Source: an uncultured Alphaproteobacteria bacterium (GTDB lineage: Bacteria > Pseudomonadota > Alphaproteobacteria > UBA7985). From it: 43,702 bases of DNA. The notes under the pieces are model-generated. The model was given only the letters and a program-made list of their open reading frames with translations, searched no databases and was not told where the DNA came from. Positions within the stretch are counted from its first letter, which is position 1. The number at the start of each line of letters is the position of its first letter. The stretch lies in contig CAJQLX010000035.1 in assembly GCA_905479265.1 (NCBI GenBank), forward strand, positions 1-43,702, read 5' to 3'. The translations under genes were made by a program, and so were the position numbers. This document shows, piece by piece, positions 13,208 through 16,897 of this stretch.

Positions 13208-13278
13208 TACAGTCACATTGATCAATTCGTCGGTGGTTCAGCCCTCTTATTTGCGCAAAAAGCCGGGCGCCAAAATGC

Positions 13279-13315
13279 AAACAACCCCGCGAGTGTCGCG
13301 CTCGCGGGGTTGTTT
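13279..13315. terminator. 15-bp perfect hairpin, probable bidirectional terminator
   Basis: The arms at 13279-13293 (AAACAACCCCGCGAG) and 13301-13315 are perfect reverse complements with a 7-base loop. A-rich and T-rich ends sit inside the stem, so either strand would end in TTGTTT. The only candidate transcript on the plus strand is the small gene at 13139. Confidence 0.65.
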
Positions 13316-13627
13316 ACTGAAGGGAGGAGGTTCTTCTGAGAGAGATATGAAAACAACGGGAGAAGAGACCGTTGATAATGATCGTCAATTAACTCAGCCG
13401 ATTGTCACTGAAAAGACGGCGAAACGAGAAGCAGCTTTGCTCGTTCCGCAAAGATAGATGCTTCATTACGTCTTTTTTCGCACTGACATGCGTTTTACGA
13501 ATGGCTTAAGGGGAGTCGCAGGAGTCGTTTTAACCAATCTTTACGGCTCGATTAATTTTCATCGCCATTTGGTCAGCTTTGCGTTCAATGTTTCTTTGAA
13601 CCATATTTTGCACTCTGGGGGATGACG
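13316..13627. other. intergenic stretch before the flavin reductase-like gene
   Basis: A 36-codon frame starts at ATG 13347 and ends at 13457 (MKTTGEETVD...). It has only a weak GAGAGAG site before it and no recognisable motif, so I do not call it. The rest shows no gene, and no promoter clear enough to name. Confidence 0.4.
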
Positions 13628-14339: not shown

Positions 14340-14354
14340 ATCTTGTGGGGCTTT

Positions 14355-15587
14355 ATGAAACAGCTAGAAACTGTCGGCTTGGCCGAAGGTTACAATGCGG
14401 CGAATCATTCCAATTCAAGACCACTGAATTCGGCCCGCAAGATTGCCGTGGAAACCCATCGGGATGGCCGGTATCGCCACCGCGCCAATCAATCGCAAAC
14501 CGAAGCTGCCCGAGCCAAAGGCTATCGGAAAGGGCGCGGCGCAGCTGACGGACCTGCGGGGCGGTTTGAAGTCACTGAACATGTGGCTTTTGATGATGGA
14601 TGGGAAAGTGGACAGGCGAGGCTCGAAGACTTGATCCAGCGCCCAACGACGGTATCGGAAGATCGAGCCAAGTCGGTGCTGACGTTTAATGAGTCCCCGG
14701 ATCTGGGTTTTGATCGCTCGGTCAACCCTTATCGGGGGTGCGAACATGGTTGCACATATTGCTATGCCCGCCCAAGCCACGCCTTTATGGGGTTATCGGC
14801 GGGTTTGGACTTTGAGACCAAGCTTTTCGCTAAATATGACGTTGCTCGGTTGCTGGAAGATGCGCTGCGGAAACCGGGTTATCAGGTCGCCCCCATTGCA
14901 CTGGGCACGAATACAGACCCTTATCAGCCAATCGAACGAGAGCTCAAACTGACCAGCTCGATTCTCGCCGTGCTGGATGACTGCAATCACCCCGTAACGA
15001 TCGTCACCAAATCAGCCGGAATTTTGCGCGATTTGGACCGTTTGAGCCGTATGGCTCGACGCGGCTTGGTGAGCGTGGGGCTGTCGGTCACGACGTTGGA
15101 TGCGGCGTTGTCCAGGCTGATGGAACCGCGCTGTTCCTCGCCAGCACGCCGGATCGATACCATCCGCCACTTGGCTGACGCCGGGATTCCGGTGCGGGTC
15201 ATGGCTTCGCCCATGATTCCGGGACTGAACGATTGTGAGCTCGAGGCCATCCTCGAGGCCGCACGGAAAGCAGGCGCTAGGGCTGCTTCGATGATCCCGC
15301 TACGACTGCCGCTGGAGGTTAAAGACGTTTTTCGGGATTGGCTGGAAGCAAACTTCCCGGATCGGGCGAAAAAGGTGATGTCGCAGGTCACGTCCATGCA
15401 CGGGGGAAAAGTGTATCGCGCCAACTTTGGTGAGCGGATGCGGGGCAGTGGGCCACTGGCGCACATTCTGCGGCACCGCTTCCAGGTCGCGTGCGGACGC
15501 AATGGCCTTTCGGAGCATTTGCGGCCCTTGGTGCGGGACGCGTTTTGCCCGCCCGAGCGCGCAGGGGACCAGTTATCGCTGCTCTGA
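14355..15587 (+). CDS. PA0069 family radical SAM protein
   Basis: 410 residues from the ATG at 14355, with GTGGGG four bases upstream. A TTG four codons earlier is less likely. The radical SAM iron-sulfur motif C-x3-C-x2-C is Cys129, Cys133 and Cys136 in NPYRGCEHGCTYCYARP. The protein is related to spore photoproduct lyase-like enzymes, but its reaction is unknown. The first 75 residues are basic and low in order (RYRHRANQ, KGYRKGRGAA), which hints at nucleic acid binding. Transcription probably starts near 14323 at a promoter covered by an inverted repeat. A structured RNA region and a small basic protein follow in the same direction. Confidence 0.9.
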   Translation: MKQLETVGLAEGYNAANHSNSRPLNSARKIAVETHRDGRYRHRANQSQTEAARAKGYRKGRGAADGPAGRFEVTEHVAFDDGWESGQARLEDLIQRPTTVSEDRAKSVLTFNESPDLGFDRSVNPYRGCEHGCTYCYARPSHAFMGLSAGLDFETKLFAKYDVARLLEDALRKPGYQVAPIALGTNTDPYQPIERELKLTSSILAVLDDCNHPVTIVTKSAGILRDLDRLSRMARRGLVSVGLSVTTLDAALSRLMEPRCSSPARRIDTIRHLADAGIPVRVMASPMIPGLNDCELEAILEAARKAGARAASMIPLRLPLEVKDVFRDWLEANFPDRAKKVMSQVTSMHGGKVYRANFGERMRGSGPLAHILRHRFQVACGRNGLSEHLRPLVRDAFCPPERAGDQLSLL

Positions 15588-15603
15588 GTGCCACCACGCG
15601 GAC

Positions 15604-15713
15604 GCATTGCCGGCTTTCTGGGAGGAAAAGCGGGCAATGCTGTCTGTGGTCACCCATCGTTCTTGGGTGACGATCGGCGTGCCGGTGGGGTGATGAGAGA
15701 CCATCCCACCGGC
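15604..15713 (+). ncRNA. three consecutive hairpins, candidate structured leader RNA
   Basis: Within 110 bases there are three stems. The first is GCATTGCC/GGCAATGC (15604-15611, 15633-15640) with an inner GCTTT/AAAGC across a single mismatch and a GGGAGG-bearing loop. The second is GTCACCC/GGGTGAC (15649-15655, 15665-15671). The third is a 12-pair stem 15681-15692 with 15702-15713, containing one G-T pair. No T run follows. The region lies between the radical SAM stop and the ribosome site of the small basic protein, so it may act as a leader or an mRNA-processing element. Confidence 0.5.
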
Positions 15714-15767
15714 GCGGATCCCTTCAGCACGGCCAAAAGCCTGCGATCGACAAAAAAGGAGAGTGCT

Positions 15768-16010
15768 ATGTTTGTTGCGTTCGAGCCCCAGACAACCAAC
15801 CGCCGCCGCCCGTTGCGCGGAAATGAGCCATTTCAAACGGGGACCGAGATGCTGGACCGGGTGGTTGCGGCAAGTCGCATGATTTGGCGGCGCAAGTGCA
15901 ACGCCATCATCCGATCGCGGATCCTGCGCCATCAGCGGCAGATCCAATCAGCGGATCCACACGGCTCGGCAACAAAACTGCATGCCCTGTACGTTCACAA
16001 ACCCATGTGA
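15768..16010 (+). CDS. small basic hypothetical protein (80 aa)
   Basis: Not recognised. AAAAAAGGAGAG directly precedes the ATG at 15768, a strong ribosome site. The frame is open back to a GTG at 15588, right after the radical SAM stop codon, but that part covers the three hairpins and is unlikely to be coding. The product is rich in Arg and Lys (NRRRPLRG near 11-18, WRRKCNAIIRSRILRHQRQ near 40-58) with one Cys and no membrane segment. It may bind nucleic acid. It lies 180 bases downstream of the radical SAM gene on the same strand and may share its transcript. Confidence 0.5.
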   Translation: MFVAFEPQTTNRRRPLRGNEPFQTGTEMLDRVVAASRMIWRRKCNAIIRSRILRHQRQIQSADPHGSATKLHALYVHKPM

Positions 16011-16045: not shown

Positions 16046-16897
16046 CTAGGCCAGAGGATCCTTGATCACGCGCATGGACTGCGTGCCCAATCCCGGGCTG
16101 GAAAGCTCGATCGTATCGCCGGGAACGAGATATTGCGGCGGCTTCAACCCCATGCCGACACCCGGCGGGGTGCCGGTGCAGACGAGGTCACCGGCCTCAA
16201 GCGTTTGATACTGAGAGAGGTGTTCAATGATGCTTGGAATGTCGAAAATCATCGTTGCCGTCGTCCCAGATTGGCGAAGGTCGCCGTTGACGGAGGCTTG
16301 CAACGGGTGGTTTTGCGGCGTTGAAATCTCATCGGTCGTCACCAGATAGGGCCCGGTCGGGCCAAAGGTGTCGAAGGACTTGCCCTTGCTCCAAAGACCG
16401 CCGCGATCCATCTGAAACGTCCGTTCTGAGATATCGTTCACCAGCGTATAGCCCGCAATATGGTCCCATGCGGCCTCGCGCCGGATGTACCGCCCACCGG
16501 TGCCAATCACAAAGGCAAACTCGACCTCGTAATCAAGGCGATCTGAGCCGCGGGGGTGGAGAATATCGTCGTTCGGCCCGCTGATGCAGGACGATGCTTT
16601 GTAGAAAACAATCGGCTGCTCTGGAATGGGAAGGCCAGCTTCTTCGGCGTGGTCGGCATAGTTCAATCCGATACCGATAAATTTACCGGGCCGAGGAATG
16701 GGAGCGCCGAGGCGCACGTTGCTGGGGACCAGCGGCAGCGACGCGGGATCAAGAGCAGAAAGCCGGGCCAAGCCCGCAGGCGAGAGAGCCTGTGCATCGA
16801 AGTCTGCGATGTGTTCTGACAAGTCGCGAATGGCGCCGTTTTGGTCCAACAAACCGGGCTTCTCCGCGCCAATATTTCCGTGTCGCAGCAACTTCAT
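16046..16897 (-). CDS. fumarylacetoacetate hydrolase family protein
   Basis: 283 residues, the usual length for the short FAH proteins (ureidoglycolate lyase, acylpyruvase and 5-carboxymethyl-2-hydroxymuconate isomerase groups). Family marks are GIGLNYADHAEEAG near residues 75-88, the metal-binding E-x-E in DYEVEFAFVIG, an Asp in YTLVNDISER, WSKGKSFDTFGPTGP, and CTGTPPGVGMG near the C-terminus. It would use Mg or Mn to cleave or isomerise a 2-oxo-acid-like substrate in the cytoplasm. GGGGGAG stands about 12 bases before the ATG. No pathway neighbours narrow the substrate. It is convergent with the small basic gene and divergent from hemC. Confidence 0.9.
   Translation of the reverse strand: MKLLRHGNIGAEKPGLLDQNGAIRDLSEHIADFDAQALSPAGLARLSALDPASLPLVPSNVRLGAPIPRPGKFIGIGLNYADHAEEAGLPIPEQPIVFYKASSCISGPNDDILHPRGSDRLDYEVEFAFVIGTGGRYIRREAAWDHIAGYTLVNDISERTFQMDRGGLWSKGKSFDTFGPTGPYLVTTDEISTPQNHPLQASVNGDLRQSGTTATMIFDIPSIIEHLSQYQTLEAGDLVCTGTPPGVGMGLKPPQYLVPGDTIELSSPGLGTQSMRVIKDPLA

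What the first reader, a model, noticed from the sequence alone, without database searches (positions are those of the whole stretch)
15604..15713. Three packed hairpins between a radical SAM gene and a small basic protein
A 110-base stretch holds an 8+5 pair stem, a 7-pair stem and a 12-pair stem with short loops and almost no spare sequence, directly before a strong ribosome site. That density is unlikely by chance and differs from a terminator because no T run follows. It may be a new leader RNA, a protein-binding RNA or a processing element; the downstream basic protein is a candidate binder.
Basis: partly seen in the sequence, partly recalled or inferred. Interest (0 to 1): 0.6.

Follow-up and report, generated by a model that had tools for sequence, protein, structure and literature searches.

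The report
Hairpin cluster between two bacterial genes
Between a radical SAM enzyme gene and a small uncharacterised gene of a marine alphaproteobacterium lies a genuine cluster of three strong RNA hairpins, most likely an ordinary spacer that blocks or protects the message between the two genes, since only one of the three hairpins is kept in related species.

Summary
The three hairpins are real and extreme. The stretch 15604-15713 folds to -65.7 kcal/mol (z -6.9, 0 of 200 shuffles as good). It is the most stable + strand 110-mer of the window, and ranks 1st in energy and 2nd in z among 67 stretches after stop codons sampled from the same genome. Correct extents are H1 15597-15648, H2 15649-15671 and H3 15678-15716. 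There is no U-tract, no Rfam match and no second copy in the genome.

Six genomes of the genus keep the flanking radical SAM and FAH genes. Only three carry the small basic ORF, and those same three carry a homologue of H3 (covariance model E 7e-9, 4e-9, 5e-7). H1 and H2 are not kept: G003 has a different hairpin there, and G001 has no packed structure (z +0.5) and a weakened H3. Covariation cannot be claimed from three sequences. The long frame from 15588 is not conserved.

Best reading: an intercistronic hairpin cluster just after a stop codon, acting as a transcription/decay roadblock that separates the radical SAM message from the small ORF. The kind is known (hairpin-cluster terminators; puf-type intercistronic hairpins). 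A leader RNA bound by the small protein is not excluded, but nothing supports it directly.

The parts
14343..15587 (+). PA0069-family radical SAM protein gene; its stop codon lies 9 nt before the first hairpin
   Evidence: NF033668 E 6.7e-149; Pfam Radical_SAM E 1e-18; kept in all six genomes of the genus
15597..15648 (+). Hairpin 1 (7+8+5 pairs, GGGAGG-containing loop), -32.9 kcal/mol; not conserved
   Evidence: no counterpart in G001 or G003
15649..15671 (+). Hairpin 2 (8 pairs, 7-nt loop), -12.8 kcal/mol; replaced by an unrelated hairpin in G003, none in G001
15678..15716 (+). Hairpin 3 (15 pairs, 9-nt loop), -29.7 kcal/mol; homologous hairpin in the three genomes that carry the small ORF
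15752..15761 (+). Shine-Dalgarno region AAAAAAGGAG of the small ORF; AGGAG kept in all three carriers
15768..16010 (+). Small basic ORF (80 aa), orphan, conserved core WRR(E/K)C...IRxRIL.HQRQ, one predicted long helix
16046..16897 (-). Convergent fumarylacetoacetate-hydrolase family gene, syntenic neighbour on the far side
   Evidence: Pfam FAA_hydrolase E 7e-65

Best explanation
The hairpins are an intercistronic RNA hairpin cluster on the transcript of the radical SAM gene. They begin 9 nt after its stop codon, form behind RNA polymerase as ribosomes leave, and act as a roadblock: they stall or partly terminate transcription without a U-tract and/or shield the 3' end of the radical SAM message from 3'-5' exonucleases. 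This lowers or separates expression of the downstream small ORF, which is either reached by read-through or starts from a promoter not recognised here. Shown: the structures, their rarity, their position, and the kinship of H3 among the carriers of the small ORF. Inferred: transcription, termination or protection, and co-transcription with the small ORF.
For: Cluster starts 9 nt after a stop codon, with hairpins 0 and 6 nt apart, as described for termination clusters (hairpins less than 15 nt apart, mostly within 20 nt of the stop, U trail not needed, favoured in GC-rich genomes; PMC8355165). Extreme stability. No recognisable promoter between the genes. G003, despite a different sequence, again has strong tandem hairpins 18 nt or so after the stop (z -2.9), so the architecture persists while most of the sequence changes. 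Another three-hairpin cluster follows a stop codon elsewhere in this genome (L118). In non-carriers no same-strand gene follows, and no such cluster is present.
Against: Clear intrinsic terminators in this genome carry U-tracts, including the L118 cluster. G001 keeps both genes but lacks the cluster (z +0.5). The cluster tracks the small ORF rather than the radical SAM gene. No expression data were available.
Confidence: 0.47

Rival explanations
1. A cis-acting leader of the small ORF's own message: H3 (with or without H1 and H2) stabilises the 5' end or is bound by a regulator, possibly by the small basic protein itself.
For: H3 homologues occur in exactly the three genomes with the ORF and in none of the three without it. 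H3 is better conserved than the rest of the spacer (79% column identity against 55-57% for longer spacer alignments). The small protein is basic and helical.
Against: H3 lies 48-51 nt from the start codon in two genomes and about 146 nt in the third, so it has no fixed relation to it. H3 is weak in G001 (-17.3 against -31 to -33). No promoter was recognised. Three carriers of one lineage may simply share descent.
Confidence: 0.2
2. Fast-evolving spacer palindromes without a selected function, kept for now by common descent.
For: H1 and H2 are not conserved and G001 shows no excess structure. Covariation is not above shuffles.
Against: z of -5.8 to -6.9 and top rank in the genome sample. G003 independently has strong tandem hairpins, and H3 keeps 86% of cells paired against 41-55% for slid partners.
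Confidence: 0.25
3. A stand-alone small RNA, for example a 3' UTR-derived RNA of the radical SAM gene, whose purine-rich loops (GGGAGG in H1, GAGAG in H3) pair with targets.
For: Compact, stable and intergenic. A purine-rich loop with an invariant GAG is present in H3 of all three genomes.
Against: No U-tract at a 3' end, no promoter, no Rfam match at the gathering threshold and only an implausible snoRNA at E 0.92. Most of the body is not conserved.
Confidence: 0.07

Closest known systems
Hairpin-cluster intrinsic terminators (Gupta and Pal 2021, PMC8355165)
   Same: Several hairpins less than 15 nt apart, starting within 20 nt of a stop codon, no U trail, GC-rich genome
   Different: Those were defined in inter-operon regions with RNA-seq; here a same-strand small ORF follows, no RNA-seq is at hand, and H1 (15 outer pairs) and H3 (15 pairs) have stems longer than the 2-10 bp called short in that paper
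[quoted passage not shown]
   Same: Several hairpins within a polycistronic message of an alphaproteobacterium, proposed to give the two sides different stability
   Different: Unrelated genes; co-transcription and decay are not shown here; the original paper could not be read
REP/BIME-type repeated palindromes
   Same: Extragenic palindromes after a gene
   Different: Single copy: no second copy in its own genome by BLAST or covariance model

Membership tests
Hairpin-cluster terminator | Contiguous hairpins less than 15 nt apart | tested here: met
   Gaps of 0 and 6 nt
Hairpin-cluster terminator | Nearest hairpin close to the stop codon (mostly within 20 nt) | tested here: met
   9 nt
Hairpin-cluster terminator | Short hairpins (stems of 2-10 bp) | tested here: not met
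   Only H2 (8 bp) is short; H1 and H3 have about 15 or more pairs
Hairpin-cluster terminator | RNA-seq coverage falls at the cluster | not testable with these tools
   No expression data held
Canonical intrinsic (U-tract) terminator | GC-rich hairpin followed by a run of T | tested here: not met
Structured leader RNA (riboswitch- or r-protein-leader-like) | Structure conserved with covariation across homologues | tested here: inconclusive
   H3 is alignable in 3 of 3 carriers but covariation is not above shuffles; H1 and H2 not conserved
Structured leader RNA (riboswitch- or r-protein-leader-like) | Match to a described RNA family | tested here: not met
   Rfam 15
REP/BIME repeat | Many copies in the genome | tested here: not met

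The most novel reading that the evidence does not exclude
H3 and the small basic helical protein form a lineage-specific autoregulatory pair, in which an orphan protein binds a hairpin in its own leader within one marine alphaproteobacterial genus.
Probability: 0.08. Interest if true: 0.45.

Novelty: new member of a known kind. Interest (0 to 1): 0.22.

Why it matters
It adds an example of a dense hairpin cluster without a U-tract between two genes of an uncultured marine lineage, and suggests that such clusters turn over quickly while one hairpin persists together with a lineage-specific small gene. The orphan small gene with a conserved WRREC...IRARIL.HQRQ core is worth annotating.

Tried and rejected
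Translated long frame from 15588: rejected (G003 has in-frame stops; the open frame of G001 shows no similarity, p 0.81).

Repeat family: rejected. The palindrome pattern found nothing, but it does not match H3 itself exactly, so it is uninformative.

Rfam families: none.

Leader peptide MLSVVTHRSWVTIGVPVG (start at the end of H1, stop in H3): by reading the sequences, no start codon is placed comparably after the GGGAGG of G003 or G001.

Fourth small hairpin after H3 (15731-15741): too weak (-3.4 kcal/mol, z -0.6).

Wider search for H3: one weak hit in a class-level genome (G063, E 0.004), judged chance (it lies in sequence that looks coding by eye).

Small ORF elsewhere: none in the other families of the order, nor in viral contigs. 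One class-level hit, G389 at E 3e-4, covers 26 residues and has a stop inside, so it was judged chance.

PDB by sequence and by fold: nothing useful.

Full report
OBSERVATION. The hairpins exist as described, with slightly different limits: H1 15597-15648, H2 15649-15671, H3 15678-15716. 15604-15713 folds to -65.7 kcal/mol against a shuffle mean of -40.5 (sd 3.7; z -6.9; 0 of 200). Among 8719 + strand 110-mers of the window (step 5) it is the most stable. In a sample of about 407 kb of the same genome (window plus 20 contig stretches), it is more stable than the best 110-mer of all 130 roughly called intergenic spaces. It ranks first in energy and second in z among 67 stretches of 135 nt after stop codons. 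The only better z, in L118, is also a three-hairpin cluster after a stop codon, but that one ends in TTTTT. At the window locus no U-tract follows any hairpin, and the promoter/terminator scan finds nothing here.

SURROUNDINGS. Upstream is a PA0069-family radical SAM gene (14343-15587, NF033668 E 6.7e-149). Downstream is an 80-residue basic ORF (15768-16010), then a convergent FAH-family gene (16046-16897, -). The named records that appear to correspond to the sister genomes are marine metagenome bins labelled Geminicoccus, Rhodospirillaceae and Kiloniella.

COMPARISON. Five other genomes of the genus are held; all keep the radical SAM and FAH neighbours. The small ORF is present in the window genome (G000), G003 and G001. 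It is absent from G002, G004 and G005, where the interval is only 132, 65 and 151 nt. The ORF core is conserved as protein, with WRR-C-A-IR-RIL-HQRQ invariant in the three. In that core the second codon position changes least (6, 6 and 9 differences, against 12-15 at the first and 14-20 at the third position), as expected of a translated gene. It has no Pfam, NCBIfam or convincing PDB relative. It is predicted as one helix, residues 25-61, with pLDDT of about 90 over residues 31-60, and has no fold match.

[quoted passage not shown] Its fold z-scores are -5.8 (G000), -2.9 (G003) and +0.5 (G001); the intervals of the non-carriers G002, G005 and G004 give -1.0, -0.3 and +1.2. H3 aligns in all three carriers: 79% mean column identity over 44 columns, against 57% and 55% over the longer spacer alignments. 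On the H3 stem 86% of cells pair, against 41-55% when the partner is slid. But only two pairs have a change on both sides, and 199 of 500 shuffles reach that, so covariation is not established. G003's hairpin is as strong as the window's (-33.2 against -31.1 in 44-nt pieces) and G001's is weak (-17.3). A covariance model of H3 finds only these three loci in the genus at E < 0.1 (6.9e-9, 4.4e-9, 4.5e-7); those loci also trained it, so the result speaks to the absence of other copies, not to independent discovery. In a class sample of 289 genomes it finds one weak match, in sequence that looks coding by eye. H1 and H2 have no sequence counterpart: G003 has a different hairpin just before its H3, and G001 has none.

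(a) 'Homologues that keep the protein genes but lack base pairing': largely met by G001, not by G003. (b) 'Long frame from 15588 translated': rejected, because G003 carries in-frame stops there and the open frame of G001 is not similar (p 0.81).

MECHANISM. The position (9 nt after a stop), spacing (0 and 6 nt) and absence of a U trail match a published description of termination hairpin clusters, which are commonest in GC-rich genomes (PMC8355165), although two of the three stems are longer than that paper calls short. Intercistronic hairpin groups that help set decay of a polycistronic message are known from the puf operon of another alphaproteobacterium (Klug and Cohen 1990, as cited in PMC7509114; the original was not readable here). 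I therefore take the cluster as a transcription/decay roadblock between the radical SAM message and the small ORF (0.47). Selection on the exact sequence seems to act, if at all, only on H3. The main tension is that the cluster follows the small ORF's presence rather than the radical SAM gene: non-carriers lack it. Either a roadblock is needed only when a same-strand gene follows, or H3 belongs to the small gene's leader (0.20). With three sequences and no expression data these cannot be separated, and neutral turnover (0.25) remains possible.

NOVELTY. The element is not in Rfam and the small ORF has no named family, but the kind of element is known. I score it low to moderate.

Noticed in passing
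window 13277-13317: A 41-nt near-perfect palindrome (GCAAACAACCCCGCGAG...CTCGCGGGGTTGTTTAC, -30.6 kcal/mol) without a T run, followed by TGAAGGGAGG, in a long gap upstream of the flavin reductase gene.
   Followed up: no
window 15768-16010: Orphan 80-aa basic ORF found only in three genomes of the genus, with no Pfam or NCBIfam match.
   Followed up: partly
L118 1160-1295 (- strand): Another three-hairpin cluster after a stop codon in the same genome (z -7.6), ending in a canonical TTTTT terminator.
   Followed up: partly
L107 2148-2331: Short near-repeated units (GTCGGCGGGTGCCGA...GGATAATATGTCGGCGGGTGCCGA) that fold into nested hairpins in an intergenic space of the same genome.
   Followed up: no
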